Origin: Alphaproteobacteria bacterium
GTDB taxonomy: Bacteria; Pseudomonadota; Alphaproteobacteria; Rhodobacterales; Rhodobacteraceae
Assembly: GCA_030425145.1 (NCBI GenBank)
Contig: JAUHVK010000030.1
Coordinates: forward strand, 1-56,199
Direction: 5' to 3'
Length of the DNA: 56,199 nt
Positions within the stretch are counted from its first letter, which is position 1. The number at the start of each line of letters is the position of its first letter. Under the pieces are notes generated by a model. It saw only the letters and a program-made list of their open reading frames with translations, had not been told where the DNA came from and did no database searches. A program made the translations under genes and the position numbers. Positions 41,130 through 56,024 of this stretch are shown here, piece by piece.

Positions 41130-42104
41130 TTATTCGCAGGCGTAGGACACGCCGTTGGCGGCGTCGATCTTGCGGATCACTTCCCAGAATTCCTTATATG
41201 TCATCTCAAGGAACTGACCTTCGTTCGACTTTTCGAATTCGGCTTGAAGCGTCGTGCCTTCCCATTCGAAATTGAAGAACGCGTTGCGAATTTTTTCCTG
41301 CAATTCGGGCGCGAGATTGTAGACAACGCCGAACCCTGTGGTGGGGAAGGTTTGCGACTTATAGATCGTCACCACGTCGTCTTCCTTGATCACGTCACGC
41401 TGGATCATGCGTGCCTTGACCGAGTTCGCGATGGAGGCTGCCGGATAGTCCTTGTTCGCAACACCCAAGATCGAGTTGTCATGCTTGCCCGAGAAGACCG
41501 GCTCGAAATCACGCTCGGCAACCAGATCGAAATCACCTTTGAGGATGGCCGATGGAGCTTTGAAGCCGGAGTTGGAGGTCGGCGAGGTGAAGGCGAGTTG
41601 CTTGCCTTTGATGTCTTCAACCTTTTCGATGCCCGAGCCAGAATAGGTGATGATCTCCATCTCATAGCCGAAATTTCCGTCTTTCGACGCCATGATCGTG
41701 AATGGGCGGAAGCCGGCGCAGTTCACGGCCAGCGGGTTCGACCCCGTGTTGAAGCCCGCAATGTGCAGACGGCCAGAGCGCATCGCTTCAATCTGGGCCG
41801 CGTTGTTTTGCACCGGGAAGAACACGACATCCTTGCCGGTTTCTGCTTCCAGATGCTCGAGGAAATCCGACCATGCAGTCTTGTAGACCGCCGGGTCCTC
41901 AACCGGGGTATAGGCAAAAATCAGTGTATCGGGATCAATCTGATCGGCCGCATCGGTCGGGATGTCCGCAATCAGGTCACCATCGACATCGCAGAAACGA
42001 TCATCAAGATCGCCACGCGGGCAGTCCTGTGCCGAGGCACTTGTGCCAATGGACATCAGAGCAATCGCTGATGCGCCCAACAGAAGTTTAATATCCAGTT
42101 TCAT
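41130..42104 (-). CDS. phnD: Phosphonate-type ABC transporter binding protein PhnD
   Basis: This periplasmic binding protein has 324 residues, with a signal peptide (about 1-22, LGASAIALMSIGTSASA). After it comes an unusual acidic segment with two Cys (QDCPRGDLDDRFCDVDGD), then the binding-protein fold (IFAYTPVEDPAVYKTAW, VQNNAAQIEAMRSGRLHIAG, FTSPTSNSGFKAPSAIL with the anion-binding Ser/Thr). The ATG at 42104 follows GGAGGAG by six bases; longer readings were rejected. It lies 53 bases after the DeoR gene and heads the transporter genes. No phosphonate-degrading enzyme is in the window, so the anion is uncertain. Confidence 0.9.
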   Translation of the reverse strand: MKLDIKLLLGASAIALMSIGTSASAQDCPRGDLDDRFCDVDGDLIADIPTDAADQIDPDTLIFAYTPVEDPAVYKTAWSDFLEHLEAETGKDVVFFPVQNNAAQIEAMRSGRLHIAGFNTGSNPLAVNCAGFRPFTIMASKDGNFGYEMEIITYSGSGIEKVEDIKGKQLAFTSPTSNSGFKAPSAILKGDFDLVAERDFEPVFSGKHDNSILGVANKDYPAASIANSVKARMIQRDVIKEDDVVTIYKSQTFPTTGFGVVYNLAPELQEKIRNAFFNFEWEGTTLQAEFEKSNEGQFLEMTYKEFWEVIRKIDAANGVSYACE

Positions 42105-42157
42105 GTTTTCTCCTCCCATGAATGCGGCTTCCCTCACCGCTTAAATTTGTCTCTAGA

Positions 42158-42973
42158 TCATGCACTCCGGGCGACGATTACCTCCACATCCGCCCCGTTC
42201 AACGACGCCAGAAGCTCCCCCTTCGGACGTGCATCAACCACCACTGAATCCAGATCGGCCATGTCTCCGACATGCGCCAATCCCTTCAGCCCGAACTTGC
42301 GCGTGTCGATCAACAGGTGCCGCTTGGCGGCACGGCTGAGCATCATGCGTTTGACCGCCGCAAAGCCACGTACCGTTTCCGATGGCCCGTCAGACGACAG
42401 GCCCGACGCGCCGATCATACAACGGTCCACGTTAAAGCGCGCAAGGAATTCGAGCGTTTCGGTACCGATCACCGCTGACTCCTCAGCAAGGTATTCTCCT
42501 GGGCACAACACCACTTCGGGCGCGCCGTGTCCAATTGTCATGGCGACCGGGATGGAATTTGTGATCACCGTACATTTCGTTCCGCGAAACGCGAGGGCGC
42601 GGGCAAGCTGAATGGTGGTCGAGCCGGAATCGATCATCACGGTCTCGCCATCCTGCACCAGTTCTGCCGCTTTCAGCCCTATCCGTTCCCGCTCTTCAAT
42701 CTGCGCGCTTGTGCGCTCGTTGAGGTCTGGATAGTGCCCTTGCGCCGGTGCGGACGCGCCACCATGCGCGCGGGCGATCAGCCCATCGTCAGACAGCGCG
42801 TCCACATCCCGGCGCACCGTTTCCGTCGACACGTTGAAGCGGCGCGCAAGCTCGCTGATCCGCACATGAGGGCGCAGCTTGAGCTCAAGCAGAATCTGGC
42901 GGCGCCGGTCAGATTTCTTGAGCCGGACCGGTCCTGGTTCTGCACTGGCGTCCTGTGTTTCCGTGGCTGACAT
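42158..42973 (-). CDS. DeoR/GlpR-family regulator
   Basis: This 271-residue DeoR-family repressor has the N-terminal helix-turn-helix VRISELARRFNVSTETVRRD (about 36-55), then the DeoR sugar-phosphate sensor domain (MIDSGSTTIQLARAL, ERERIGLKAAELV). Members bind phosphorylated ligands such as glycerol-3-phosphate. It is the first gene of the unit that continues with phnDCEE, HAD and ugpBAEC, so it probably controls that unit and itself, with a phosphorylated product as signal. The divergent neighbour is the Na/Pi transporter gene. Confidence 0.88.
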   Translation of the reverse strand: MSATETQDASAEPGPVRLKKSDRRRQILLELKLRPHVRISELARRFNVSTETVRRDVDALSDDGLIARAHGGASAPAQGHYPDLNERTSAQIEERERIGLKAAELVQDGETVMIDSGSTTIQLARALAFRGTKCTVITNSIPVAMTIGHGAPEVVLCPGEYLAEESAVIGTETLEFLARFNVDRCMIGASGLSSDGPSETVRGFAAVKRMMLSRAAKRHLLIDTRKFGLKGLAHVGDMADLDSVVVDARPKGELLASLNGADVEVIVARSA

Positions 42974-43000
42974 GTGCCCTTCCGACTCGAATACCCCTTC

Positions 43001-43040
43001 ACTTTTGTGGACTTTCCGACATTTTTCAATTATTTTTGTT
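43001..43040. promoter_or_regulatory. Phased T-runs upstream of the DeoR gene
   Basis: Four T-runs recur about every ten or eleven bases (ACTTTTG, ACTTTCC, ATTTTTC, ATTTTTG) in the divergent region between the DeoR gene (start 42973) and the Na/Pi transporter gene (start 43143). DeoR-type regulators often bind short direct repeats, and phased runs can also bend DNA. I cannot tell which applies. Confidence 0.3.
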
Positions 43041-43142
43041 GCATAACACGCAGTTGAGTGCTCAGATCCTTAGAAATACCACGAAAAGCCAAGGTGCATC
43101 GCTCATCATGCTTCTGCACATTCCTGACTTGGACAGTCCAAT

Positions 43143-44804
43143 ATGATCCTTCTCGCCGCACAGCTTGCGGCGGCGGTCGCATTGTTGCTTTGGTCCACGC
43201 GTCTGATCCGAACCGGGGTGGAACGTGCGTTCATGCCGGAACTGAAAATCGGCCTGAAACGCCTCGCGGGGAATTCGCTTTCGGCGGCGGCAGGTGGCGG
43301 GCTTGCGGCAATGATCATGCAAAGCGCGACGGCAGTGGCTTTGATCAGCGCAGGCTTTGCCGTTTCAGGCATGTTGGCACCCTATACCGCTCTTGCGATC
43401 CTCTTGGGGGCGGAGCTTGGGTCAGCGCTGATGACACGTGTGCTGATCCTGCCGGTCGAAGCTGTCTTGCCTTTTGCCCTGCTCGCCGGGGTCACCGCTT
43501 TCTTCAAGGCCAAAAGCCGGAAGATGAAACAGGTTGGCCGTATCATCATCGGTCTGGCGCTGGTCTTCATCTCCTTGGGGATGATCCGCGAGGCCACAGC
43601 GCCAATTGGCGAGAATGCAATCATTCAAAGCATCGCAGCGTATTTCCGGAACGACCTCATCAGCGCCTACGCTGTGGGTGCTGTACTGACTTGGGCCATG
43701 CATTCCAGCCTTGCCGCCGTACTGACCTTTGCGACTTTTGCGGCAACCGGAATGATTTCCGCCCCTGTTGCGGCAGCGCTGGTCATTGGCGCGAACCTCG
43801 GTGGTGCCGTCATTCCTTTTGGCCTCCTTTGGTCAGCCGAGCGTCCGGCACGGTTGATCGCTTTGGGCAACCTCGTGGCGCGCGGGACGATGACGGTGAT
43901 TTTTCTTAGCGTTTTGCTCAGCGGCCGCGTCGACATCGCACTTTTTGGCGCGTCACCGGCACAGCAAACGGTCACGTTGCACATCCTGCTCAATGCAACG
44001 CTGTTGCTGATCGCTCTGCCCTGCGTAGGCGTAATCGTGCATCTGGCAGACAGCGTGCTGCCCCGCCACAGCGACAAGGAAACGGATACACTTTCGGCGC
44101 TTGACCCCGACGCGCTGGATCATGCGCCTCTGGCCCTTGCCTGCGCGCAACGAGAATTGCTGCGCATGTCGGAAACCGTGCAGGCCATTCTCGTTCCGGT
44201 CATTCACCTCTTCCGCAACTGGGACCCGGAACAAGCCCGCGTGATCGAACGCCGCGAGGACGAGATCGACCGAATGCATTTCGATACAAAGATCTACATC
44301 TCGCGCCTGCGGGAAACCGATCTGCAACCCTCGCAGGAGAAAAAGACGCTTGAAATCGTCGCGATGGCCAACAGCCTTGAAGAGGCCGCAGATCGTATTG
44401 CGGTAAACCTGGTGACGCTGGCCAAAAAGATGTCGAATGAGGCCATAACCTTCTCGGACGAGGGGCTGGCCGACATTGCCCATTTCCATGACCAGGTGGT
44501 GACCAACGGGCAATTGGCGCTAAGCGTTTTGACCACAGGCGATGCCGAAGCCGCGCGTCAGCTTGTGGCGGAAAAAGACCGCATCCGTTTCGAGGAACAA
44601 AAGCTTCAAGAGCGCCACCTCAAACGACTGCAAGTGGGCGCTCCGGCGAGCATTGAAACCACCAACATTCATCAGGACGTGCTGCGGGTTCTCAAACAGA
44701 TCAACGCCGCCCTGACCTATGTCGCCTACCCGATTGCCGAAGAAACCGGCGATCTCCTCGAGAGCCGCCTTGCCCGTCCGCGAGGCATCCGGGGGTCGGC
44801 ATGA
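43143..44804 (+). CDS. Na/phosphate cotransporter with PhoU-like tail
   Basis: This 553-residue NptA/YjbB-type inner-membrane protein has two inverted transporter repeats in the first 320 residues, each with the Gln/His-Ser-x-x-Ala element (MIMQSATAVALISAG and WAMHSSLAAVLTFATFA). A cytoplasmic PhoU-like helical domain spans about residues 340-540 (VIERREDEIDRMHFDTKIYI, MANSLEEAADRIAVNLV). The family moves phosphate with sodium, in some bacteria outward. It is divergent from the DeoR-phn-ugp unit and overlaps the NUDIX gene (ATGA). Confidence 0.88.
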   Translation: MILLAAQLAAAVALLLWSTRLIRTGVERAFMPELKIGLKRLAGNSLSAAAGGGLAAMIMQSATAVALISAGFAVSGMLAPYTALAILLGAELGSALMTRVLILPVEAVLPFALLAGVTAFFKAKSRKMKQVGRIIIGLALVFISLGMIREATAPIGENAIIQSIAAYFRNDLISAYAVGAVLTWAMHSSLAAVLTFATFAATGMISAPVAAALVIGANLGGAVIPFGLLWSAERPARLIALGNLVARGTMTVIFLSVLLSGRVDIALFGASPAQQTVTLHILLNATLLLIALPCVGVIVHLADSVLPRHSDKETDTLSALDPDALDHAPLALACAQRELLRMSETVQAILVPVIHLFRNWDPEQARVIERREDEIDRMHFDTKIYISRLRETDLQPSQEKKTLEIVAMANSLEEAADRIAVNLVTLAKKMSNEAITFSDEGLADIAHFHDQVVTNGQLALSVLTTGDAEAARQLVAEKDRIRFEEQKLQERHLKRLQVGAPASIETTNIHQDVLRVLKQINAALTYVAYPIAEETGDLLESRLARPRGIRGSA

Positions 44805-45286
44805 GCAAGACAAAGGCACGGAAAAAGGCCGCGGCTCCGATAGAGCAGATCGCAGCGCTGCCGGTGGTTTGGGACAAGAACGGCAAGCTGCGCGTGCTTA
44901 TGGTCACGTCCCGAGACAGCGGGCGTTGGGTGATGCCAAAAGGCTGGCAGATGGATGGCAAGAAACCGTGGCATGCGGCGAAGATCGAAGCCTTGGAAGA
45001 GGCAGGCGCCATTGGTTTCATCTCGGACACCGAAATCGGCCATTACCACTACGATAAACGCATGGAAGACGGGCGGAAAATCCTCTGCCGCGTTACCCTC
45101 TATCCGATGATCGTAGACAAGCTGAAAAGCCGCTGGAAGGAGCGCAAACAGCGCAAGCGGCATTGGTTTTCGGCCAAGAAGGCAGCCAAGCTGGTGGAAG
45201 AAAAGGAGCTGACGCAGCTCCTCAAATCGCTCCCTCAGTTGGAAGACCAATTGAAGTCGATCCAGCAAATGCGGGACGCTGCCTGA
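44801..45286 (+). CDS. NUDIX hydrolase
   Basis: This 161-residue NUDIX protein has its box at about residues 48-70 (GWQMDGKKPWHAAKIEALEE then AGAIG), preceded by WVMPKGW. The first Glu and the Arg of the consensus box are replaced (Lys and Ile), but the EE pair that binds metal is kept. The form resembles DIPP-type NUDIX enzymes that cleave diphosphoinositol polyphosphates or dinucleoside polyphosphates. The C-terminal half is Lys/Arg-rich (KLKSRWKERKQRKRHWFS). Its start overlaps the Na/Pi transporter stop, which suggests a link to phosphate balance. Confidence 0.85.
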   Translation: MSKTKARKKAAAPIEQIAALPVVWDKNGKLRVLMVTSRDSGRWVMPKGWQMDGKKPWHAAKIEALEEAGAIGFISDTEIGHYHYDKRMEDGRKILCRVTLYPMIVDKLKSRWKERKQRKRHWFSAKKAAKLVEEKELTQLLKSLPQLEDQLKSIQQMRDAA

Positions 45287-45307
45287 CGATTTCAGACCCC
45301 AGCAAAT

Positions 45308-45988
45308 CTAATCTTCGGGTGAAGCCGACGATCGTGGTCCGTAGTTCTGGAACGCCGCCGAGACCTCTGCAATCTCGGCATCCGAGAGGATGTGTGGCGC
45401 GCCGCCAATACTGCTGAACAGGTAAGTGCGCGCCAGTGTCTCCAACTCCTCGAGCCGCCATCGCGCCTTGGCGATGCTTTCGCCCAGCACCGTGGCGCCG
45501 TGGTTCGCCATCAAACACGCGTGCCGATCCGCCATGATCTCGGCCATGTTGGCGCAAAGCTCCGGACTGCCGAAAAGCGCGTAATCCGCCAGCGGCACGC
45601 TGTATCCGCCGAAGGCTGCAATCATGTAGTGGCAGGCAGGGATGGCACGCCGCTGAACCGCGAGAATACTGCAATAAGGCGGGTGTGCGTGAAGAACGAC
45701 AGGCATATCCGGCCGCGCCTGATGCAATCCTTGATGAAAGGGCCATTCCGATGAAGGCTTCAACCCGATGCCATCCGGTTCACCGACCAACGGGATCGTC
45801 ACCATCTGGTCAGGTGACAATTCATCATAGGGCACCCCGGACGGCGTGATGAGGATACCTGCCTCAGTCCGGGCCGAGATATTGCCCGATGTCCCCTGAT
45901 TGAGATGCCGTTCATTCATCCAGAGGCAGGCGTCAATTAACGCCTGACGGGTCTCTTCTGTGTCCGGTAACGGATTGGCAGGTGTCAT
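45308..45988 (-). CDS. FucA-like class II aldolase (DHAP-shunt aldolase candidate)
   Basis: This 226-residue zinc aldolase is strikingly like L-fuculose-1-phosphate aldolase (FucA): LNQGTSGNISAR, LITPSGVPYDEL, catalytic Glu in SSEWPFH, zinc ligands in HAHPPYCS and NHGAT, and IPACHYMIAAFGGYSVP. MtnB dehydratases share the fold but not these stretches. Next to mtnA and mtnK, and with no mtnC or mtnD here, the likely reaction is cleavage of 5-methylthioribulose-1-phosphate or 5-deoxyribulose-1-phosphate to DHAP and an aldehyde. It is the last gene of the mtnK operon, overlapping the SorC gene by one base (TGATG). Confidence 0.87.
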   Translation of the reverse strand: MTPANPLPDTEETRQALIDACLWMNERHLNQGTSGNISARTEAGILITPSGVPYDELSPDQMVTIPLVGEPDGIGLKPSSEWPFHQGLHQARPDMPVVLHAHPPYCSILAVQRRAIPACHYMIAAFGGYSVPLADYALFGSPELCANMAEIMADRHACLMANHGATVLGESIAKARWRLEELETLARTYLFSSIGGAPHILSDAEIAEVSAAFQNYGPRSSASPED

Positions 45989-46992
45989 CAGACCATCTCC
46001 AACAGCTCTTCCGCGACGCGGGTACTGGTCGCCAGATGGGTGACAAAACCGCCCTTCATCGCCGCGCAGGCCGGACGTGCGCGCCCCGGACCAGCGGCCA
46101 CCAGCAACGCCATGTCCTTGCCGCGCATCTGGACGAGCGAGACACCGATCATTCGCTCTTCCACCGTCGACACGATGGGGTTGCCCTGACTGTCAATCAA
46201 TCGGCCACAGATCACTCCAACCGCTCCTTCGGCGCGGTACTTTGCGATCTCATCCGGCGTCAAGATCCCGCTTTTGACCACATGGGCATCTTCATCGCAG
46301 GTGCCGCAGGCAAGCACCGTCTTGTTGCAGGTGGCCAATGCATCCAATTGATCCCGTACAACCGGTTCATCGCAAAGCGCATCACGCAGCGCCTTGTTCG
46401 ACAGAACCAGCGGTGCGTGGAAGTTGATGCACTCCCCACCGAGCCTCTGCGCCAGCATCGACGTGCAGGCTTCAGCGGCAAACCCAAGTGCGGCGGGACG
46501 CGATCCCAAAAGCTGAATCACCGTCAGATCAGGCACGGGTGAGTTCGGCACCTGTTGTGCCATCTGGTAGACCGTGGCCCCCCAGGACACGCCCAGCCGG
46601 TCCCCCGGCTCTAAAAGCCGTGGCAACCAATCGGCGGCCGCCCGCGTCACCCGCGCCACGCTGGCTGCTGTACCATGTGGATCGACCGGATCGTCAGGCA
46701 CGACCATCGCTTCGTTCAGCCCGTAGGCCGCGCAGAGTTCCTCGGCCAGCCGGTGTCCCTTGAAGACATCGCTGTCCATATGCACCCGCACCCAGCCCCG
46801 GTTGCGCGCTTCGTTTAGGTAATTGACCACTGACGCGCGGCTGATCCGCATACGATCCGCGATCTCGTTCTGGTTCAGACCGTCATGGTAATAGAGCCAC
46901 GCCGCCTCGATATAGGGTGCATCGTCCCGGGCAGGCATCCGCGACGCATCCACGGTCGTCGCACGTGTTTTACCAAGCGGTGTGGCAGGCAT
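45988..46992 (-). CDS. SorC/DeoR-type sugar-binding regulator
   Basis: This 334-residue SorC-family regulator has its helix-turn-helix in LNQNEIADRMRISRASVVNY (about 39-58), then a sugar-phosphate-binding domain (LGVSWGATVYQMAQQV, ATCNKTVLACGTC, VGVICGRLIDSQGNPI). Family members sense phosphorylated sugars. It lies between mtnA (nine-base gap) and the aldolase, so a phosphorylated pathway intermediate is the likely effector. The perfect palindrome at 49426-49442, between the two divergent operons, is its probable operator. Confidence 0.88.
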   Translation of the reverse strand: MPATPLGKTRATTVDASRMPARDDAPYIEAAWLYYHDGLNQNEIADRMRISRASVVNYLNEARNRGWVRVHMDSDVFKGHRLAEELCAAYGLNEAMVVPDDPVDPHGTAASVARVTRAAADWLPRLLEPGDRLGVSWGATVYQMAQQVPNSPVPDLTVIQLLGSRPAALGFAAEACTSMLAQRLGGECINFHAPLVLSNKALRDALCDEPVVRDQLDALATCNKTVLACGTCDEDAHVVKSGILTPDEIAKYRAEGAVGVICGRLIDSQGNPIVSTVEERMIGVSLVQMRGKDMALLVAAGPGRARPACAAMKGGFVTHLATSTRVAEELLEMV

Positions 46993-47001
46993 CGGGGCGC
47001 C

Positions 47002-48105
47002 CTACTCCGCCGCGCGGGCGAATTCGGGGAAAAGCGACGCCAGCCCCTCTTCGGATGCATCGCAGACACCGCGTTCTGTGATCAGTCCGGTGACCAGACG
47101 GTTCGGCGTCACGTCAAAGGCCGGGTTGCCGCCCGGAGTCCCTTCAGGAGTGACCTGCACCGTGCCGATGCCGCCGCCGTCTAGAAAGCCCTGAACATGG
47201 GTGAGTTCCCGCGCGTTGCGCTCTTCGATGGGGATCTCGGCGACACCATCCGTCACGGTCCAGTCGATCGTCGGCGAAGGAAGAGCGACGTAGAACGGCA
47301 CGCCATTGTCATGGGCGGCCAGCGCCTTGAGATAGGTGCCGATCTTGTTGCACACATCCCCTTGCCGCGTTGTCCGGTCGGTGCCGGTGATAACCATGTC
47401 CACCATCCCGTGCTGCATCAGATGCCCGCCCGCATTGTCGGTGATGTAGGTGTGCGGCACGCCGTGTTTGCCCAATTCCCAAGAGGTCAGCGCGCCTTGA
47501 TTGCGCGGTCGGGTTTCATCGACCCAGACATGCAGGGCGATGCCCGCATCATGCGCCTGATACATCGGGCTTGTGGCCGTACCCCAATCCACCGTCGCCA
47601 ACCATCCCGCGTTGCAATGGGTCAGCAGGCGCACGGGTTCCCCTGCCGGTTTCTTGGCCGCGATTTCTCGGATGATGGCCAAGCCGTTTTCCCCGATCCG
47701 GCGGTTGATCTCTACGTCCTCATCGGCAATCTCATGCGCCAGCGCCAAAGCTGCAGCAGCACGTTCACCCTCTGCCAAAGGTCGGAGCGCAGCGCGGCAG
47801 CGGTCAAGCGCCCAGCGCAGGTTGATCGCCGTTGGGCGTGTTTTCTCTAGAAACGTCCAAGCCACATCCATGTTTGCATCGGACGGGTCTTCCGCCATCG
47901 CAAGCGCCATGCCGTACGCCGCCGTGGCCCCGATCAACGGCGCGCCGCGGACGCGCATCTCGTAGATCGCGTCTGCATAGTCCTGCATGGACGTCACCGG
48001 GATCACCCGAAAGTCGTGCGGCAGCCAGCGTTGGTCTATGATCTCAAGAACGTCCTTATCGTGGTTCCACCACAGCGAGCGGTAATGGGTTCCGTCGATC
48101 TTCAT
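47002..48105 (-). CDS. mtnA: S-methyl-5-thioribose-1-phosphate isomerase
   Basis: MtnA converts 5-methylthioribose-1-phosphate to the ribulose-1-phosphate form, and MtnA enzymes also accept 5-deoxyribose-1-phosphate. The protein has 367 residues and shows [13 protein letters not shown], the catalytic Cys in [33 protein letters not shown] and the catalytic Asp in [18 protein letters not shown]. The ATG at 48105 overlaps the mtnK stop (ATGA). It works between the kinase and the FucA-like aldolase. Confidence 0.94.
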
Positions 48106-49361
48106 AGGACATCCTTTCCGTTGAAGTCCCGCGCGATGGCGCAGACTGCGCTGGCATCTGCCAGCCTTGCAGCCTCATGGATTAATTCCGCCCCCATAAG
48201 CAGATTCCGCGCCTCGAGCGGCGCGCGCACTGCCGGGTCCGCGATATCCTCGAAATCGGCGTTGTGGGCGAGTGACAGACATCGTCGGTGCATCTCGATG
48301 CCGCAAATCGCCCAAGCATCGCGCAACAGCCCTGCCAAGACTGCATCGCAAGCAGGCGTGCTGTCCTGTCCCTGATCCTCAAACAGGCTGGCAGGATACA
48401 GAATGCCCGACCGCTCGGTCGCCCAGAGGTGCCGGAACTCGGCCTCAAAGGTCGCGCAGACCTCTTCGATCACCCCCAATATCCATTCCTGATACTCGGC
48501 AAGATCATCGCCCCGGTGGGCCGGTTGACTGAAATAAGCCATCAGGAAATTTGCGCAGAGCATTCCGATGTCGAACCCTAGCGGTCCGTATTGTGCGAAT
48601 TCAGGGTCAATCACCCGGCTTTCGCTGTCCGTGGACATGATCGACCCGGAGTGCAGATCGCCATGCACCATGGTTTCAGTGTTGGACACAAACCGCTGCA
48701 ACGCCTGTTGAACTTTGACCTTGAGCGCCACGTCAGAGCGCAGCCGTTTGACGACTGGGTCCAGACCCTCAGTATGATGGTTCATTTCGGCTGAAAAATA
48801 CGGATCAGTAAAGACGAGCGCCTCTGTGATCGCCGGAATGTCCACATTGCCAGCAAACAGAGCCACATCGGCTTTCTTGTCACCGCTCTTCATCGACAGT
48901 TCGGAACCGCGAAACGCGGTTCGGGCGCAGAACTTGCCCAAGAAGTCGGCAAGTCCCTCGACCCGTTCGCCGGCGATGAGCTTGCGGCGCAGGATCACGT
49001 GGGGCGACAGGAACTCCATGACAATCAACGCCTGCGCTTCGTCGAAATGGAAAATCTCGGGCACTGATCCGGGATCGCGCGCCGCCTGACGGGTCAAAGC
49101 ATGGTACTCGTAAAAGGCCCGGTAGAGCGGCAATGGCCAACTATCACCGACCAATCGGACATATGGCAACGCCTGTTTCACTACCGCTTTCCCGTTCGGC
49201 CCGGACACGATGAAAACAAGGTTCAGGTTGCCGTCTCCAACCTCCTGCACCTGCCATGCGGCACTGTCAGTACCCACTCTGGAGGCCAGAGCATCAACGT
49301 CTTTCAGACGTTCCGACAATGTCTCCACGCTCAGGGCTTCATACGTTGTACCGATGCTCAT
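48102..49361 (-). CDS. mtnK: S-methyl-5-thioribose kinase
   Basis: MtnK phosphorylates C1 of 5-methylthioribose, or 5-deoxyribose, with ATP. The protein has 419 residues of the choline/aminoglycoside-kinase fold, with the N-terminal [12 protein letters not shown] nucleotide loop, [11 protein letters not shown] (catalytic Asp) and [15 protein letters not shown] (metal-binding Asp). The ATG at 49361 has a strong GGGGGAG site; a longer reading to 49400 was not used. It heads the mtnK-mtnA-SorC-aldolase operon. No MTA nucleosidase or phosphorylase gene is seen, so free sugar probably comes from the divergent transporter. Confidence 0.94.
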
Positions 49362-49425
49362 CGGTGATCTCCCCCATTCCGTCCAATGCGCCCTCCCCAA
49401 TGAGGTAGCGCCGAATTTACACTTA

Positions 49426-49442
49426 TGTCAAACCATTTGACA
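49426..49442. promoter_or_regulatory. 17-bp palindrome, probable SorC operator
   Basis: TGTCAAA-CCA-TTTGACA is a perfect inverted repeat in the 128-base divergent promoter between mtnK (start 49361, minus) and the ABC transporter (start 49490, plus). Surrounding DNA is A/T-rich. One site could control both operons. Confidence 0.6.
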
Positions 49443-49489
49443 AATGTATTATCGCACGCCTACCGTCATTGCATCAGGGGAGGAACCGA

Positions 49490-51007
49490 GTGGCTGTCGA
49501 TGCGCTCAAAGTGAACGGTTTGCAAAAATCGTTCGGAAAAAACCATGTATTGCGCGGGATTGATGTGGCCTTGGAACCGGGGTCCGTGACCGTGCTCATG
49601 GGCGCAAACGGCGCTGGCAAATCCACATTGGTCAAGGTGATTTGCGGCCATCACCGCGCCGACGGCGGCAGCATGACACTGGCCGGCAAGGCGTTTGACC
49701 CCGTGGATGCCGCAGACGCGATCCGGCAGGGTGTCGTCACGGTTCACCAGTCCATTGACGACGGTGTGATTCCCGATCTGGACGTCGCCAACAACCTGAT
49801 GCTGGACCGTCTGGTGGAACGCAGCCACGGGCTGTTTGTCCGCGAACGTCACCTGCGCGCCGAGGCGGCCAAGGTCGCCGCCGCGATGGGGATCGACGTC
49901 AATCTGCGCGCCCGCGTGTCAGACCTGTCGGTGGCGGATCGCCAGATGATCGCCATTGCCCGCGCCATGGCCCGTGCGCCCAAGGTCCTGATCCTCGACG
50001 AGCCGACATCGTCGCTTTCGGCCACCGAGGCGGACCGGTTGTTCGCGCTCATCGACCGGCTGCGCGCGCAGGGGGTTGCGATCCTCTACATCTCGCACCG
50101 CATGTCCGACATCCGCCGCATCGCGGATCGGATCATCGTCATGCGCGACGGGGCGATTTCCGGCACCTTCGAGACGACCCCCTTGGACTACGAAGCCGCC
50201 GTGACAGCCATGCTGGGCCACCGCATGACCGAAGTGGATGTAGCTGTGCAAAGCGGCACGGCCCCTGTTCTGGAACTTGCGGACCTGCGGCTTTTCAACG
50301 GGTCTGCCCCGATCACCCTTCAGGCCTGCGATGGCGAGGTGGTGGCACTGGTCGGCCTTCTGGGCAGTGGCAAGAGCCGGTTGGCGGAAATCCTCTACGG
50401 TATGGCCCGCCCGGCCAGCGGCGCGATCCGTATCAACGGCACGGACTACACGCCACGCTCGGTCGAAGACGCGGTGGCAGAGGGCGTGTTCATGTCGCCT
50501 AAGGACCGGGGCACCAATGCGGTGATCCCTGCGTTCGACATTGCAGACAATATGACCCTGCCCTTTCTCAAGGGATTGAGCGTCGGGTCGTTCCTCAAGG
50601 CAAACCGCCAGAAAACCCGCGCACAGGAGATGGTCAGCCAGCTTGGTATCGTCTGCCAATCGGTGGGCGACGGCATCGGCACGCTGTCAGGTGGCAACCA
50701 GCAGAAGGTGATGATCGCCCGCTGGCTGCTGGAACCCGCGCAGGTGCTTCTGCTCGACGAACCGTTCCAAGGGGTCGACATAGGCGCCCGGCGCGATATC
50801 GGGCGTCATATCCGCGCCACGACACAGGGACGGGCCACGCTCGTGTTCCTCGCGGAAATCGACGAAGCGCTCGAAATCGCCGACCGCATCGTTGTGATGA
50901 ACGAAGGCGCCATCGTCGGCGAACACAAGAACCAGAATGTCGATCTCGCCGCGCTGGTCGCGGACATCTCGGGGGCCCAATCGACCGCAACAGGCACATT
51001 TTCATGA
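49490..51007 (+). CDS. Ribose-type ABC transporter ATPase, two domains
   Basis: This 505-residue CUT2-class sugar ATPase has two ABC domains. Domain 1 has Walker A GANGAGKST and DEPTSSLS. Domain 2 (from about 255) has the diverged GLLGSGKSR and the signature LSGGNQQKVMIARWLL, as usual in RbsA. The start is the GTG at 49490, six bases after GGGGAGG; an in-frame TTG further up lies over that ribosome site. Being divergent from mtnK-mtnA-aldolase, it probably imports 5-methylthioribose, 5-deoxyribose or a nucleoside that yields them. Confidence 0.9.
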   Translation: MAVDALKVNGLQKSFGKNHVLRGIDVALEPGSVTVLMGANGAGKSTLVKVICGHHRADGGSMTLAGKAFDPVDAADAIRQGVVTVHQSIDDGVIPDLDVANNLMLDRLVERSHGLFVRERHLRAEAAKVAAAMGIDVNLRARVSDLSVADRQMIAIARAMARAPKVLILDEPTSSLSATEADRLFALIDRLRAQGVAILYISHRMSDIRRIADRIIVMRDGAISGTFETTPLDYEAAVTAMLGHRMTEVDVAVQSGTAPVLELADLRLFNGSAPITLQACDGEVVALVGLLGSGKSRLAEILYGMARPASGAIRINGTDYTPRSVEDAVAEGVFMSPKDRGTNAVIPAFDIADNMTLPFLKGLSVGSFLKANRQKTRAQEMVSQLGIVCQSVGDGIGTLSGGNQQKVMIARWLLEPAQVLLLDEPFQGVDIGARRDIGRHIRATTQGRATLVFLAEIDEALEIADRIVVMNEGAIVGEHKNQNVDLAALVADISGAQSTATGTFS

Positions 51008-52014
51008 ACGACCGACTTCTCGACTTTGCCATCCGCTACGGCTTTCTGATCCTGCTGGTCGGGCTGATCATCTATTTCAGCCTGGCCGCACCAGGTTTTT
51101 TCGGCCCGCTCTCTGCCGCCTTTGTCCTACAATCCGTGGCGATCACCGGAATTCTGGCCTTGGGCGTGACCTGCACGCTGGTCGTGGGCGGGTTCGATCT
51201 GTCCATCGGAGCAGTTGCGACATCGGCGCTGATGCTGTCGGCCTATTCGATGGTGATCCTCGAACATCCAACCATCGTTGCTGTCGCCCTTTGTCTGGGC
51301 ATGGGCGCGCTGGTCGGGTTCATAAACGGCATCCTGATTGTCAAATTCCGCGTACCCGATCTTCTGGCAACGCTTGGCATGATGTTCCTTCTGATCGGGC
51401 TTCAACGCATCCCGACGCAGGGCAATTCCATCGCGACGGGTATGACCCTTACTGATGGCACCGTGGCCGAAGGTACGTTTTCGGCTGCCTTCCTGTGGTT
51501 GGGTCGTCACCGATTTGATCTGGTCATCGAACGACTGTTGCCCATGCCGGTTGTGATTTTCATCGGGATCGCCGTTCTGATCTGGCTCTTCCTCGGGTTC
51601 ACCCGCCACGGTCGGTTGATGTACGCAATCGGGTCAAACGAACGCGCTGCGGCGCTCGTGGGCACACCGGTCAACAGCTACAAGGTGGCCGCCTATATGA
51701 TTTCGGGCGTCACCGCGTCCATCGGGGGCATCCTGCTGGCCGCCCGTCTGGGGCGCGGCGACATCGCCAGCGGCAACAACCTGCTTTTAGACTCAGTTGC
51801 GGCAGCCTTGATCGGCTTTGCAGTACTGGGCGCAGCTCGCCCCAACGCCTTCGGCACCGCCATCGGCGCGCTTTTCGTCGGCATTCTTTTGCAAGGCATG
51901 ACCATGATGAACGCGCCCTATTACACGCAGGATTTCGTCAAGGGCGCGGTTCTCGTCGCCGCTCTTGTCTTCACATTCTACCTGTCGTCGCGTCGCAGCG
52001 GCACAGGACACTGA
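51004..52014 (+). CDS. Ribose-type ABC transporter permease
   Basis: This 336-residue RbsC-like permease has eight to ten hydrophobic segments (YGFLILLVGLIIYFSLAAPG as the first), the family loop TLVVGGFDLSIGAVATSALM and YAIGSNERAAALVGTPV near residue 210. Its ATG overlaps the ATPase stop (ATGA). A single permease gene implies a homodimeric pore, normal for the class. Confidence 0.9.
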   Translation: MNDRLLDFAIRYGFLILLVGLIIYFSLAAPGFFGPLSAAFVLQSVAITGILALGVTCTLVVGGFDLSIGAVATSALMLSAYSMVILEHPTIVAVALCLGMGALVGFINGILIVKFRVPDLLATLGMMFLLIGLQRIPTQGNSIATGMTLTDGTVAEGTFSAAFLWLGRHRFDLVIERLLPMPVVIFIGIAVLIWLFLGFTRHGRLMYAIGSNERAAALVGTPVNSYKVAAYMISGVTASIGGILLAARLGRGDIASGNNLLLDSVAAALIGFAVLGAARPNAFGTAIGALFVGILLQGMTMMNAPYYTQDFVKGAVLVAALVFTFYLSSRRSGTGH

Positions 52015-52040
52015 CAATCAGCGATAGGGAGGATATCAAC

Positions 52041-53081
52041 ATGCTGAGACGTCACTTCATGGCCCTCGCGAGCGCGGCCAGCCTCGCCCTCGGTGCGGGT
52101 GCGGCCACGGCGCAGAGCGCCCCCGCCCCGCTGGACAATCCCGGCGACGTGACCATCGCGTTGGTGCGTTACCTGTCCACTGGCGACTTCTTTCAGGCTT
52201 ATCTCTCTGGAGTGGAATCCCAAGCGGCTGCCCTTGGTGTGAACCTGCGGGTATTCGACAGCCGACAGGACGCCGCCCTTCAGGCCGACATGGTAGATCA
52301 GGCCATCGCGCTGGGCGTCGATGGGATCGTCATCCAGCACGGGCTGACCGAATCCATGCGCGACGCGGCACAGCGCGCCGTGGATGCCGGGATCAAGGTC
52401 GTTGCCTTTGACGTGAACGTCGAAAACGAAGCCATCCCGCAGATTGAACAGTCGGATTACCTGCTAGGCAAGCTGGCGCTGGAACAAGCGATCGAAGACA
52501 ACGGTAAAAACTTTGCCGCCGGATATGTCTACGTGCCGGGCATTGCCCCGCTGGATCGCCGCCATGTCGCATGGGAAGAGGTTAAGGCCGCCAATTCCGG
52601 CATCACCGAAGCCGCCCGCATCGGTACGCTCGACAACCCGATTGCCAACTCGAACGCCAACCAGGCACGCGCGGCCTTGCAGGCGAACCCGAACATCTCG
52701 GTCTTCTTCGCGCCCTATAACGAGTTCGCCAAAGGCGTGAAAATCGCGGCGGACGAATTGGGGATCGGTGGCGATCTGAGCATCTATTCCGCCGACATCT
52801 CGACTGCTGACATCGCGCTCATGCGTGAAGCTGGAAGCGGTTGGAAAGCGACCGTCGCCACCAACCCGGCTGTTGTGGGCGAAGTCTCGGTTCGGGCACT
52901 GGCTCTGATGCTGACCGGCGAGAACCCGGGCGCGTCGGTCATCGTGCCGCCAACCCTCATCACGCAGGCGTTCCTCAACGACGAGGATATCCGCAACATG
53001 GAAGACCTCGGCGCGAAGATGCCCCAGTTCCAGCACGCGGATGTGGCGATGGCAGACTGGATGCCCCTGCCGCCCCGCTAA
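52041..53081 (+). CDS. Ribose-type ABC transporter binding protein
   Basis: This 346-residue periplasmic binding protein has a signal peptide (about 1-25, ALGAGAATAQS) and the RbsB-like fold: VTIALVRYLSTGDFFQAYLS, LQADMVDQAIALGVDGIVIQ, KVVAFDVNVENEA. AGGGAGGA lies nine bases before the ATG. The ligand is inferred from the neighbouring mtn genes to be a 5-substituted or 5-deoxy pentose. No ribokinase gene is seen in the window, which argues against plain ribose. Confidence 0.9.
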   Translation: MLRRHFMALASAASLALGAGAATAQSAPAPLDNPGDVTIALVRYLSTGDFFQAYLSGVESQAAALGVNLRVFDSRQDAALQADMVDQAIALGVDGIVIQHGLTESMRDAAQRAVDAGIKVVAFDVNVENEAIPQIEQSDYLLGKLALEQAIEDNGKNFAAGYVYVPGIAPLDRRHVAWEEVKAANSGITEAARIGTLDNPIANSNANQARAALQANPNISVFFAPYNEFAKGVKIAADELGIGGDLSIYSADISTADIALMREAGSGWKATVATNPAVVGEVSVRALALMLTGENPGASVIVPPTLITQAFLNDEDIRNMEDLGAKMPQFQHADVAMADWMPLPPR

Positions 53082-53147
53082 CACCCACTCGCCTGACCTC
53101 GCCGCGCGTGGGGTCAGGCCAAACCTTGCGCAATCGGAGCCGCTGCC

Positions 53148-53591
53148 ATGTTGATCGGACTGGACCCGCGCCTGACACCCGACCTGCTGTATACGATGGC
53201 CCGGATGGGACATGGCGACGAGATTGTGTTAGTGGACCGGAATTACCCCTCGGACACTTCTGCGGCGGGGTGTCTGGTCAGGGACGTGATCCACTATCCC
53301 GGACAGGAAGCGCCCCTCGTTGCAGACCTGATCACCCAGCTTATGCCGCTGGACGGCTTCCACAGCTATTCCGCGCTTCGGATGGAGATCGACAACGAAC
53401 CGGACACCTTGTCGGAGGTCCATCAGGAGGTGTGGGATGTCTTGGAACCGCGCCTGCCCGAAGGCGGTGCCATGTCCAGCATTGAGCGGCAGGCGTTCTA
53501 CCAACACGCGGCAACCTGTTTTGCCGTGGTTCAGTGTAGCGAGGATCGGCCCTTCGGCTGTTTCATTTTGCGCAAGGGTGTCGTCTTCTGA
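53148..53591 (+). CDS. FucU/RbsD-family sugar mutarotase
   Basis: This 147-residue protein of the RbsD/FucU family interconverts ring forms or anomers of free sugars. The N-terminal motif is LLYTMARMGHGDEIVLVDRN, with the catalytic His, and the C-terminal QAFYQHAATCFAVVQC and GCFILRKGV match FucU (fucose mutarotase) better than RbsD. A 5-deoxy or 5-thio pentose cannot form a pyranose, so anomer exchange of the furanose for MtnK is the logical role. It is the last gene of the transporter operon and is followed by a strong terminator. Confidence 0.87.
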   Translation: MLIGLDPRLTPDLLYTMARMGHGDEIVLVDRNYPSDTSAAGCLVRDVIHYPGQEAPLVADLITQLMPLDGFHSYSALRMEIDNEPDTLSEVHQEVWDVLEPRLPEGGAMSSIERQAFYQHAATCFAVVQCSEDRPFGCFILRKGVVF

Positions 53592-53654: not shown

Positions 53655-55922
53655 TCAGTCCGCGCCGCGCACGGGGATTGCAGCGTCCGGATCAGGATGC
53701 AGGAAGCGCTGCACGAACCATGCCGCAGCCGTTGCCCCGATCCCGATCAGATCGGTGATCAACCCGCCTTCAATCATGAACAGCGCCGCAACGATCAAGC
53801 CAAGACGAATGAACCACACCGCACGTTGACCCACGAACCAGCCTTGCACCCCTCCCGACAAGAGGAACACACCAAAGGTTGCCGTGACGCCCGCCCGGAT
53901 GACTTCGAACCATGTGCCGTCCATCAACAGCGCACTGTTGTAGAAGAACATGAAGGGCACGATGAACGCCGCGATGCCAACCTTGAAACTGACCACACTG
54001 GTCTCCATCGGGTTCGCGCCGGAGATCCCCGCCGCTGCATAGCTGGCCAGCGCCACGGGTGGCGTAATGGCCGACAGCACCGCAAAGTAGAACACGAAGA
54101 AATGTGCGGTGAGCTGCGGGATTCCCAGTTGGACAAGGCCCGGAGCGACGACGGAGGCCGCAACCGCATAAGCAGCGGTCGTCGGCATCCCCATTCCCAA
54201 AAGGATCGCGATGCACATCGCAAAGAAGAGCGCCAGAAGTTGGCTGACACCGGCGAGGTCCAGCAGCACCGCCGAGAAGCGTGCGCCCACGCCGGTGAGG
54301 CTGATGACGCCAACGATGATACCCGCGCAGGCACAGACCGCAATGATCTGGATCGACATGATGCCCGCGAGTTCGAACGCCTTGGCGATGCCACGCAGGG
54401 TCATCGGGAACGGAGTCAGCCAGCTCACCATGGCTGCTGCAATCGTTGCCAGCGTGCCTGCCCGGATCACCGAATAGCCCATAAACAAAGCGGCGATCAG
54501 GATGATGATCGGAATGAACAGGTAGACCTGCCGTACCATTTTGGCGAGCTTGGGCAGTTCATCTTCGCGCATTCCACGCATACCCAGTTTTGCGGCTTCG
54601 AAATCGACCATGAAGTAGACCGACACAAAGTAAAGCACCGCCGGAATGACCGCCGCGATGGCGATCTCCTGATAGGGAATGCCGGTGATCTCGGCCATGA
54701 TAAAGGCCCCTGCGCCCATGATCGGCGGCATGATCTGCCCACCGGTGGAGGCGGCAGCCTCCACCGCACCTGCCGTCGTGGGGCGATAGCCCACCTTCTT
54801 CATCAGCGGAATGGTCAGCGATCCGGTCGCAACCACGTTGCCCGCCGATGTGCCGTTGATCATGCCCATCAGACCGGAGGCGAAAATCGCCACTTTCGCC
54901 GGACCACCACGCGCGCGCCCGGCAGCGGCAAAGGCGAAGTTGACGAAATAGTCGCCCACTTTCGACGCCTGAAGGAAGGCTGCGAAGATGATGAACAGAA
55001 TGATATACGTCGAAGACACGGCCGTTGTCGGCCCGAGGATACCCGCATCCGAATAAACGTGACCAAAGAAGCGCTGCCAGGAATAGGCGCTTTGCACGGC
55101 CAGAATGCCCGGCAGCAAATGTGCGACGAAGGTGTAGAGAAGGAAGACACCGGTAATGATCACCAGCGCAAGACCCGCAACACGGCGCGTCAACTCAAGG
55201 ATCATCGCAGAACCGGCCGTCGCGGCGAAAGCAACCCCGATAGGCACAAACGGCGTACCGACCGAGTTGCGGGCCGCGGTGCCGTAGATGGCGATCAAAT
55301 AGGCAGCGACTGCGAAACCGCAAACCGCTAGCAAGATGTCTGAAACGCGGAACCTGTCACGTGGCGCTTTTTCCAGCCAGCCGAGGACGATGCCCCCACC
55401 CGTTGCAACCAACAGCGGAAGGCCGAAATACCAGACTTCCTGGCTGTAGATCGGTGTTCCTGCAAACGCGGGCCATGTGGTCAGTCCACCCATTTCCGGC
55501 AGGGTGCCAGAAGCGATTGTCCGGGCAAACCACAGGCTTGCACCCAGTGCCAGCAGCGCGGGCAGGAAAAGCACATAAGCGATCTTGCCCCACGGGCCGC
55601 CCTGCGTGTCGTCGTCCTTGTCCGAAAACATCATCGCGTTGTAGACGAGGAAGCCCAAGGCCAGCGCGCCCGCGATATGGACGATGCGAAAATTCCACGT
55701 CTCCATCGGGAATTGCGGCAAGAGCGGAACTGTTATCCCGGTATAGGCCGAGATCGACACGCCGTTGAGGGCCGCCATATGAAACAAGGCATAGAGCGCG
55801 GCAAATCCCGCCACAGCCTGCATGCGCCAGCCAGAGAAGATGCGACGGTTGCCTTCTACCGGCTCTTCATCAACACCATCGGCGATCAAACCGTCTTCGG
55901 CCTGTGTGGAGTCCTGAACCAT
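53655..55922 (-). CDS. TRAP transporter fused permease (4TM/12TM, TAXI type)
   Basis: This 755-residue fusion combines the small DctQ-like and large DctM-like TRAP subunits. After a hydrophilic N-terminus (about 1-35) come the DctQ-like helices and then many further helices, with GLMGMINGTSAGNVVATGSL, GGQIMPPIMGAGAFIMAEIT and GMGMPTTAAYAVAASVVAPG in the DctM-like part. Such fusions work with TAXI receptors using an ion gradient. The ATG at 55922 has a near-perfect AAGGAGG five bases upstream, so a GTG two codons earlier was rejected. The receptor gene lies upstream on the same strand, separated by a terminator. Substrate is unknown; related systems carry C4-dicarboxylates or glutamate-like acids. 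Confidence 0.92.
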   Translation of the reverse strand: MVQDSTQAEDGLIADGVDEEPVEGNRRIFSGWRMQAVAGFAALYALFHMAALNGVSISAYTGITVPLLPQFPMETWNFRIVHIAGALALGFLVYNAMMFSDKDDDTQGGPWGKIAYVLFLPALLALGASLWFARTIASGTLPEMGGLTTWPAFAGTPIYSQEVWYFGLPLLVATGGGIVLGWLEKAPRDRFRVSDILLAVCGFAVAAYLIAIYGTAARNSVGTPFVPIGVAFAATAGSAMILELTRRVAGLALVIITGVFLLYTFVAHLLPGILAVQSAYSWQRFFGHVYSDAGILGPTTAVSSTYIILFIIFAAFLQASKVGDYFVNFAFAAAGRARGGPAKVAIFASGLMGMINGTSAGNVVATGSLTIPLMKKVGYRPTTAGAVEAAASTGGQIMPPIMGAGAFIMAEITGIPYQEIAIAAVIPAVLYFVSVYFMVDFEAAKLGMRGMREDELPKLAKMVRQVYLFIPIIILIAALFMGYSVIRAGTLATIAAAMVSWLTPFPMTLRGIAKAFELAGIMSIQIIAVCACAGIIVGVISLTGVGARFSAVLLDLAGVSQLLALFFAMCIAILLGMGMPTTAAYAVAASVVAPGLVQLGIPQLTAHFFVFYFAVLSAITPPVALASYAAAGISGANPMETSVVSFKVGIAAFIVPFMFFYNSALLMDGTWFEVIRAGVTATFGVFLLSGGVQGWFVGQRAVWFIRLGLIVAALFMIEGGLITDLIGIGATAAAWFVQRFLHPDPDAAIPVRGAD

Positions 55923-56024
55923 TGCCACCTCCTTGGCAAAACCCGCCTAGGCATCTGCGTCGGCGCTTGGAATGTGTTTGAAAAGGCATCCACTGTGTCG
56001 CATTCGGTGATGGAAAGGATGCTG

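What the first reader, a model, noticed from the sequence alone, without database searches (positions are those of the whole stretch)
45308..53591. Dedicated uptake and DHAP-shunt system for 5-methylthioribose or 5-deoxyribose
mtnK, mtnA and a FucA-like aldolase form the known DHAP shunt that turns 5'-methylthioadenosine or 5'-deoxyadenosine sugars into DHAP and an aldehyde. Here they are paired, across a shared promoter, with a complete ribose-type ABC importer and a mutarotase and carry their own SorC regulator. No nucleosidase and no later methionine-salvage genes (mtnC, mtnD) are present, so the system appears to scavenge these by-products from outside the cell.
Basis: partly seen in the sequence, partly recalled or inferred. 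Interest (0 to 1): 0.8.

Follow-up and report, generated by a model that had tools for sequence, protein, structure and literature searches.

The report
Importer and breakdown operon for 5-methylthioribose

The parts
45308..45988 (-). FucA-like class II aldolase, proposed 5-(methylthio/deoxy)ribulose-1-phosphate aldolase
   Evidence: Pfam Aldolase_II; 44.6% identity to FucA over 202 aligned residues; positions E73, H92, H94, Y113, H155 and Y209 all kept
45988..46992 (-). SorC-family regulator, proposed repressor of both operons
   Evidence: Sugar-bind 186 bits; 34% identity to an E. coli YjhU/MtnR
47002..48105 (-). mtnA, MTR-1-phosphate isomerase; only copy found in the genome
   Evidence: TIGR00512 433 bits, over cut-off; one match in the own genome
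48102..49361 (-). mtnK, MTR kinase; only copy found in the genome
   Evidence: TIGR01767 449 bits, over cut-off; one match in the own genome
49426..49442 (.). Palindromic operator TGTCAA-ACCAT-TTGACA
   Evidence: One match in the window, 0.01 expected; exact in 45 of 53 divergent intergenic regions (43 of 50 distinct, window included), the rest with 1 or 2 mismatches
49437..49466 (+). Proposed importer promoter: TTGACA, 18 bp, TACCGT, the -35 lying inside the operator
   Evidence: TAnnnT 16-18 bp after the right half-site in 32 of the 47 regions long enough to test, 1.9 expected from shuffles
49490..51007 (+). Sugar ABC transporter ATPase (two ABC domains)
   Evidence: AraG/RbsA-like, below equivalog cut-offs; start chosen by eye; open frame from 49469
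51004..52014 (+). Permease, RbsC type
   Evidence: BPD_transp_2, RbsC-like
52041..53081 (+). Periplasmic binding protein, proposed 5-methylthioribose/5-deoxyribose binder
   Evidence: Closest solved structure 4ry8; orthologues only in mtnK+ genomes of two samples
53148..53591 (+). FucU-type mutarotase
   Evidence: RbsD_FucU; nearer to the L-fucose mutarotase model (63 bits) than to D-ribose pyranase (26 bits), both below cut-off; PDB best Atu2016 91 bits

Best explanation
It is a sugar-inducible scavenging locus for 5-deoxypentoses, 5-methylthioribose (MTR) and/or 5-deoxyribose (5dR). Proposed working order. The binding protein captures the sugar in the periplasm and the ATPase/permease imports it. 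FucU interconverts the anomers: these sugars lack a free 5-OH and cannot form pyranoses, so anomer exchange rather than pyranase activity is what is needed. MtnK phosphorylates C1, MtnA isomerises to the ribulose-1-phosphate, and the FucA-like aldolase cleaves it to DHAP plus 2-methylthioacetaldehyde (from MTR) or acetaldehyde (from 5dR). SorC represses both operons from one palindrome between them until sugar or sugar-phosphate is present. Endogenous MTA/5dAdo can enter at the MtnA step through MtnP. Shown here by sequence: gene families, co-occurrence, catalytic residues, operator conservation, no MtnN, MtnB or MtnD over cut-off. Inferred: substrate, direction of transport, regulator-operator pairing, aldehyde fate.
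For: SBP nearest to 4ry8, titled a 5-methylthioribose transporter SBP. SBP orthologues (639.8 bits or more; next match 249.5) in 15 of 149 family genomes, all 15 among the 21 mtnK+; in the class sample 5 of 385, own genome included, all among the 16 mtnK+ (Fisher 3.7e-16 and 6e-8, or 1.5e-6 for the class without the own genome; relatedness ignored). Importer adjacent and divergent to mtnK in 13 of the other 20 mtnK+ family genera plus the window. MtnK and MtnA over cut-off. Aldolase catalytic set intact. No MtnN over cut-off but MtnP present in the own genome, so MtnK is not needed for endogenous MTA. B. thuringiensis DrdK, a characterised kinase of this pathway (not compared with the window here), acts on 5dR and MTR and not on ribose or fucose (PMC6079011 passages). 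E. coli MtnR, 34% identical to the window regulator, represses the DHAP shunt there (PMC12632272 abstract and passages).
Against: No biochemistry. SBP identity to 4ry8 is only 37% and I saw the entry title, not its ligand contacts. 7 of the 21 mtnK+ family genera have no adjacent importer in the stretch fetched (L060 is a 6-kb contig; L069's genome has the SBP orthologue on another contig; L066 has only a 39-45% identical ABC set about 6 kb away). The aldolase is nearer to FucA (174 bits) than to 6btd (103 bits; that this is the proven 5dR aldolase DrdA is recalled) and is below every NCBIfam cut-off. Many relatives carry a different aldolase. The operator's partner is inferred: the site is conserved also in loci, such as L029, where no SorC gene was seen. 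Two other mtnK+ genera do have MtnN.
Confidence: 0.85

Rival explanations
1. The importer serves ribose or another common sugar and merely shares a promoter region with an MTA/5dAdo detoxification operon.
For: The ATPase and permease are RbsA/RbsC-like and the SBP has weak RbsB similarity (33 bits).
Against: The SBP is nearest to an MTR SBP by sequence and fold; its orthologues were found only in mtnK+ genomes in two samples; none of the eight genes is a ribokinase; the mutarotase is FucU- rather than RbsD-like.
Confidence: 0.05
2. Methionine salvage: the class II aldolase is an MtnB dehydratase and sulphur returns to methionine.
For: mtnK and mtnA are the first methionine-salvage enzymes (names); the aldolase superfamily includes MtnB.
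Against: MtnB model 69 bits against cut-off 137; FucA tyrosines 113 and 209 and Glu73 kept; no ARD match in the own genome and 0 of 149 family genomes over cut-off.
Confidence: 0.03
3. The locus mainly disposes of endogenous MTA/5dAdo via MtnP, MtnA and the aldolase; the importer retrieves leaked sugar.
For: MtnP is in the genome and the locus holds the only mtnA and the only FucA-like aldolase.
Against: MtnP makes MTR-1-phosphate, so neither MtnK nor an importer is needed for disposal; 24 of the 45 family genomes with mtnA over cut-off have no mtnK over cut-off; the conserved operator suggests substrate-dependent expression.
Confidence: 0.07

Closest known systems
5-deoxyribose salvage clusters drdK-drdI-drdA (Beaudoin 2018, PMC6079011)
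   Same: Kinase, isomerase and class II aldolase clustered; four of the drawn clusters carry sugar transporter genes and one a fucose-mutarotase homologue (passages); exogenous salvage already suggested there.
   Different: Here the importer is divergent, with a SorC gene and a conserved shared operator; the aldolase is nearer to FucA than to 6btd (identity of 6btd with DrdA recalled). Whether the published clusters share this layout was not checked: the figure is not held.
E. coli DHAP shunt mtnK-mtnA-ald2 with MtnR/YjhU (PMC10986504, PMC12632272)
   Same: Same three enzyme families and a homologous repressor; use of exogenous 5dAdo, MTA and 5dR shown there (abstracts and passages).
   Different: In the E. 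coli locus viewed there is a single GRP-family transporter gene and no mutarotase; proteins are 34-62% identical; the MtnR site is unknown there.
5-methylthioribose transporter binding protein, T. lettingae TLET_1677 (PDB 4RY8)
   Different: Distant organism; its operon was not examined.
R. palustris DHAP-methanethiol and MTA-isoprenoid shunts (PMC5893883)
   Same: MtnP, MtnA and Ald2 act in sequence on MTA (passages).
   Different: Those serve sulphur salvage from MTA; the word transporter does not occur in the paper's main text.

Membership tests
DHAP shunt | MTR/5dR kinase or MTA phosphorylase | tested here: met
   mtnK over cut-off; MtnP on another contig
DHAP shunt | MTR-1-phosphate isomerase MtnA | tested here: met
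   433 bits against cut-off 279
DHAP shunt | Class II aldolase with aldolase catalytic residues | tested here: met
   Aldolase_II; FucA positions kept (residue roles recalled)
DHAP shunt | Cleavage of the ribulose-1-phosphate to DHAP and an aldehyde | not testable with these tools
   needs enzyme assay
5-methylthioribose ABC importer | Complete ATPase, permease and binding protein | tested here: met
5-methylthioribose ABC importer | Binding protein closest to a protein described as an MTR binder | tested here: met
   4ry8 first by sequence and fold; description from the entry title
5-methylthioribose ABC importer | Measured MTR or 5dR binding | not testable with these tools
   needs binding assay
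Canonical methionine salvage | MtnB dehydratase | tested here: not met
   neither Aldolase_II match in the own genome is MtnB: window aldolase 69 bits against cut-off 137, the other is PRK07490
Canonical methionine salvage | MtnD/ARD dioxygenase | tested here: not met
   no PF03079 match in the own genome
Canonical methionine salvage | MtnC or MtnW/MtnX | not tested
   no family search for these; a RuBisCO-like query (not MtnW itself) found nothing in the own genome
Ribose utilisation (rbs) | Binding protein nearest to RbsB | tested here: not met
   ribose SBPs at most 64.4 bits against 252.9 for 4ry8

The most novel reading that the evidence does not exclude
The importer-mtnK-mtnA core is a modular platform for living on waste 5-deoxypentoses in marine and soil Proteobacteria. 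The third step has been swapped: the FucA-like aldolase of the window; an aldolase/short-chain-dehydrogenase fusion that would also process the aldehyde, for example to methylthioacetate; and, in some loci, an added RuBisCO-like protein with a split transketolase that may take the ribulose-1-phosphate by an undescribed route. One palindrome marks the regulon across these variants.
Probability: 0.55. Interest if true: 0.6.

Novelty: new variant of a known kind. Interest (0 to 1): 0.42.

Why it matters
MTR and 5dR are by-products of S-adenosylmethionine chemistry; at least one cyanobacterium excretes 5dR (PMC8102628 passages). A dedicated, regulated importer in marine roseobacter-type bacteria would make these sugars a possible exchanged carbon and sulphur currency in the sea, testable with a short list of mutants and a binding assay. 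It would also give annotators a marker, the 4RY8-type binding protein plus mtnK plus the palindrome, for genes that the general families place with ribose transport.

Tried and rejected
Rejected: MtnB dehydratase reading. Rejected: ribose importer. Rejected: an intracellular nucleosidase as source of free sugar in this genome; the three PNP_UDP_1 matches are MtnP, DeoD and AMP nucleosidase, and the own genome's only match to the MtnN model is a weak one at the DeoD gene. Two other mtnK+ family genera (G107, G109) have MtnN over cut-off, so this argument is not general.

Led nowhere: the same palindrome upstream of mtnK in an E. coli DHAP-shunt locus (no site with fewer than 3 mismatches). On the mtnK side a -10-like hexamer at the right distance was seen in 10 of 50 regions (1.9 expected) and not in the window, so the claim of a -35 inside the operator is made for the importer side only. 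The general promoter scan of the region did not report that promoter; it gave two other matches of 9 of 12 (0.4 expected). No terminator-like site at 45000-45400. Marine sources: passages in PMC11428151 report MTA inside nitrifier cells, and in PMC9723752 MTA in reef control incubations; neither passage concerns free MTR or 5dR. The 2020 Mol Microbiol paper on the shunt is not held and was not read.

Limits of the samples: the SBP alignment A1 used 21 of the 39 SBPs at hand after (window plus 20 of 38), chosen for spread, one row (L042) with unknown residues. The class search scored at most 5 candidates per genome and the family search at most 14. The 50 loci are close relatives of the window's mtnK and so not a random sample. 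Supplementary files and figures of papers were not seen.

On novelty: ten paper searches. For uptake phrases one search found 3 papers; passages in two name a methylthioribose ABC transporter (PMC7843439, gene mtrB; PMC9502454), so that label is not new; the third was not opened. For the aldolase fusion one search listed 15 of 54 papers, none of which held 'bifunctional aldolase'. For RuBisCO-like protein with transketolase and methylthioribulose one search found 0 papers.
Full report
Observation. On the minus strand: FucA-like aldolase 45308-45988, SorC regulator 45988-46992, mtnA 47002-48105, mtnK 48102-49361, each overlapping or within about 10 bases of the next. On the plus strand: ABC ATPase (GTG 49490 by its likely ribosome-binding site, open from TTG 49469) to 51007, permease 51004-52014, binding protein 52041-53081, mutarotase 53148-53591. 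The window is contig C73 of a 4.9-Mb genome. Its name is not given; the nearest named relatives of the mtnK are Marivita species, with up to 97-98% protein identity across the locus and the same order.

Rest of the genome. One match each for mtnK and mtnA. Three PNP_UDP_1 proteins: MTA phosphorylase (over cut-off), DeoD and AMP nucleosidase. The MtnN model gives only a weak cross-match at the DeoD gene. Two Aldolase_II proteins, the window's and a PRK07490 type; neither is MtnB. ARD has no match. MtnP yields MTR-1-phosphate directly, so MtnK is needed only for free sugar, which in this genome should come from outside unless an enzyme not sought here makes it. MtnA and the aldolase can be shared by internal and external substrate.

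Family survey, 149 genomes, one per genus, the own genome included. mtnK over cut-off in 21; MtnN in 5, two of them mtnK+ (G107, G109); ARD in 0; mtnA in 45, including all 21 mtnK+. MtnP was sought only in the 21 mtnK+ genomes and is over cut-off in 17 (misses G019, G090, G107, G112). Neighbourhoods of the 20 other mtnK+ genomes: divergent importer in 13; none seen in 7. Of those 7, L060 is a 6-kb contig, L069's genome (G108) has the SBP orthologue on another contig, and L066 has only a distant ABC set about 6 kb away.

Aldolase. Nearest solved proteins are FucA entries (166-177 bits), then 4c24 (125), then 6btd (103; DrdA by recall), with an Aquifex putative class 2 aldolase (MtnB-like by recall) at 46 bits. 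Thirteen of fourteen FucA active-site positions examined are identical; Thr43 is Ser, as in the E. coli shunt aldolase of L077 (roles recalled). This fits an aldolase and not a dehydratase, but leaves the substrate unproven: it may be a separate recruitment of a FucA.

Mutarotase. It is nearer to the L-fucose mutarotase model (63 bits) than to D-ribose pyranase (26 bits), below both cut-offs. MTR and 5dR have no free 5-hydroxyl, so only furanose anomers need exchange; this is chemistry, not a result. It was found in 13 of 50 and 5 of 20 loci (some loci are cut by contig ends), so it looks accessory.

Regulation. TGTCAA-N5-TTGACA occurs once in the window (0.01 expected). Among 53 divergent mtnK/ATPase intergenic regions (50 distinct, window included), 45 (43 distinct) hold it exactly with a 5- or 6-base spacer, and the other 7 distinct ones have 1 or 2 mismatches. 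In 48 of the 77 loci then held it was found, once each, and every exact match, the window's included (49), lies 55-250 bases upstream of an mtnK match. The right half-site is a consensus -35, and TAnnnT follows at 16-18 bp in 32 of 47 regions (1.9 expected). A repressor there would block the importer promoter. That SorC is this repressor is inferred; the E. coli homologue MtnR (34% identical) is a shown repressor whose site is unknown (PMC12632272 passages).

Variants elsewhere. Within importer loci the FucA-like aldolase and the aldolase/dehydrogenase fusion were not seen together: 13, 16 and 0 with both among the 39 importer loci, ten showing neither; 3, 8 and 0 among the 13, two showing neither, some of these on cut contigs. 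One locus without importer, L071, has both. At least two genomes (L015/L061, L039/L068, by equal contig lengths) appear in both sets. Seven of the 20 family loci (six of them with the importer) and 4 of the 50 also carry a RuBisCO-like protein with a split transketolase; the own genome has no match to that RuBisCO-like protein. Its nearest solved relative is 3qfw (225 bits). R. palustris RLP1 isomerises 5-methylthioribulose-1-phosphate (PMC5893883 passages); whether 3qfw is that protein was not checked. These are leads, not results.

Known and new. Beaudoin 2018 (PMC6079011, abstract and passages) defined the kinase-isomerase-aldolase route, drew clusters with sugar transporters and a fucose-mutarotase homologue, and proposed salvage of exogenous 5dR. 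Huening 2024 and 2025 (PMC10986504, PMC12632272; abstracts and passages) showed E. coli using 5dR, 5dAdo and MTA for growth, and the repressor MtnR. A methylthioribose ABC transporter label is in print (PMC7843439, PMC9502454; passages). It is a new variant of a known kind; interest is moderate.

Noticed in passing
17 of 50 loci (e.g. L029:12344-14377, L049:13412-15508) and 11 of 20: A bifunctional aldolase/short-chain dehydrogenase (the two tested are over the NF006192 cut-off) lies in mtnK loci without the FucA-like aldolase, L071 excepted; it may also oxidise or reduce the released aldehyde.
   Followed up: partly
L047:10399-13458; L058, L063, L065, L068, L071, L073, L074: Split transketolase plus RuBisCO-like protein in mtnK loci, six of these seven family loci with the importer; a possible second route for the ribulose-1-phosphate.
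   Followed up: partly
L029:14526-16692; also L031, L032, L047, L050, L052: An amidohydrolase like MTA/SAH and 5'-deoxyadenosine deaminases (below cut-offs) and a purine nucleoside phosphorylase near the cluster in uncultured Rhodobacteraceae and a Devosia MAG.
   Followed up: partly
L013:14050-20941; also L014, L016, L018, L019, L021, L034: An aldo/keto reductase after the aldolase, then DhaK/DhaL-like genes with a second sugar ABC transporter; the reductase may take the aldehyde.
   Followed up: partly
L017, L025: mtnK without mtnA in the stretch, beside another sugar ABC transporter and a very long ORF (2776 aa; 1560 aa in L025, whose stretch ends early).
   Followed up: no
L029:17517-17891: Small cupin-like protein (named by eye; no NCBIfam match at 1e-10) near the cluster; a cupin works in the MTA-isoprenoid shunt of R. 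palustris (passages).
   Followed up: no
L077; E. coli collection: 1065 of 5426 E. coli genomes hold a place covering at least 80% of a Xenorhabdus mtnK-mtnA-aldolase query.
   Followed up: no
window 41130-45286 and 53655-55928: Flanking genes, named by eye: phosphonate-type binding protein, DeoR-like regulator, Na/Pi cotransporter, Nudix hydrolase, TRAP-type fused permease; they seem unrelated to the cluster.
   Followed up: no
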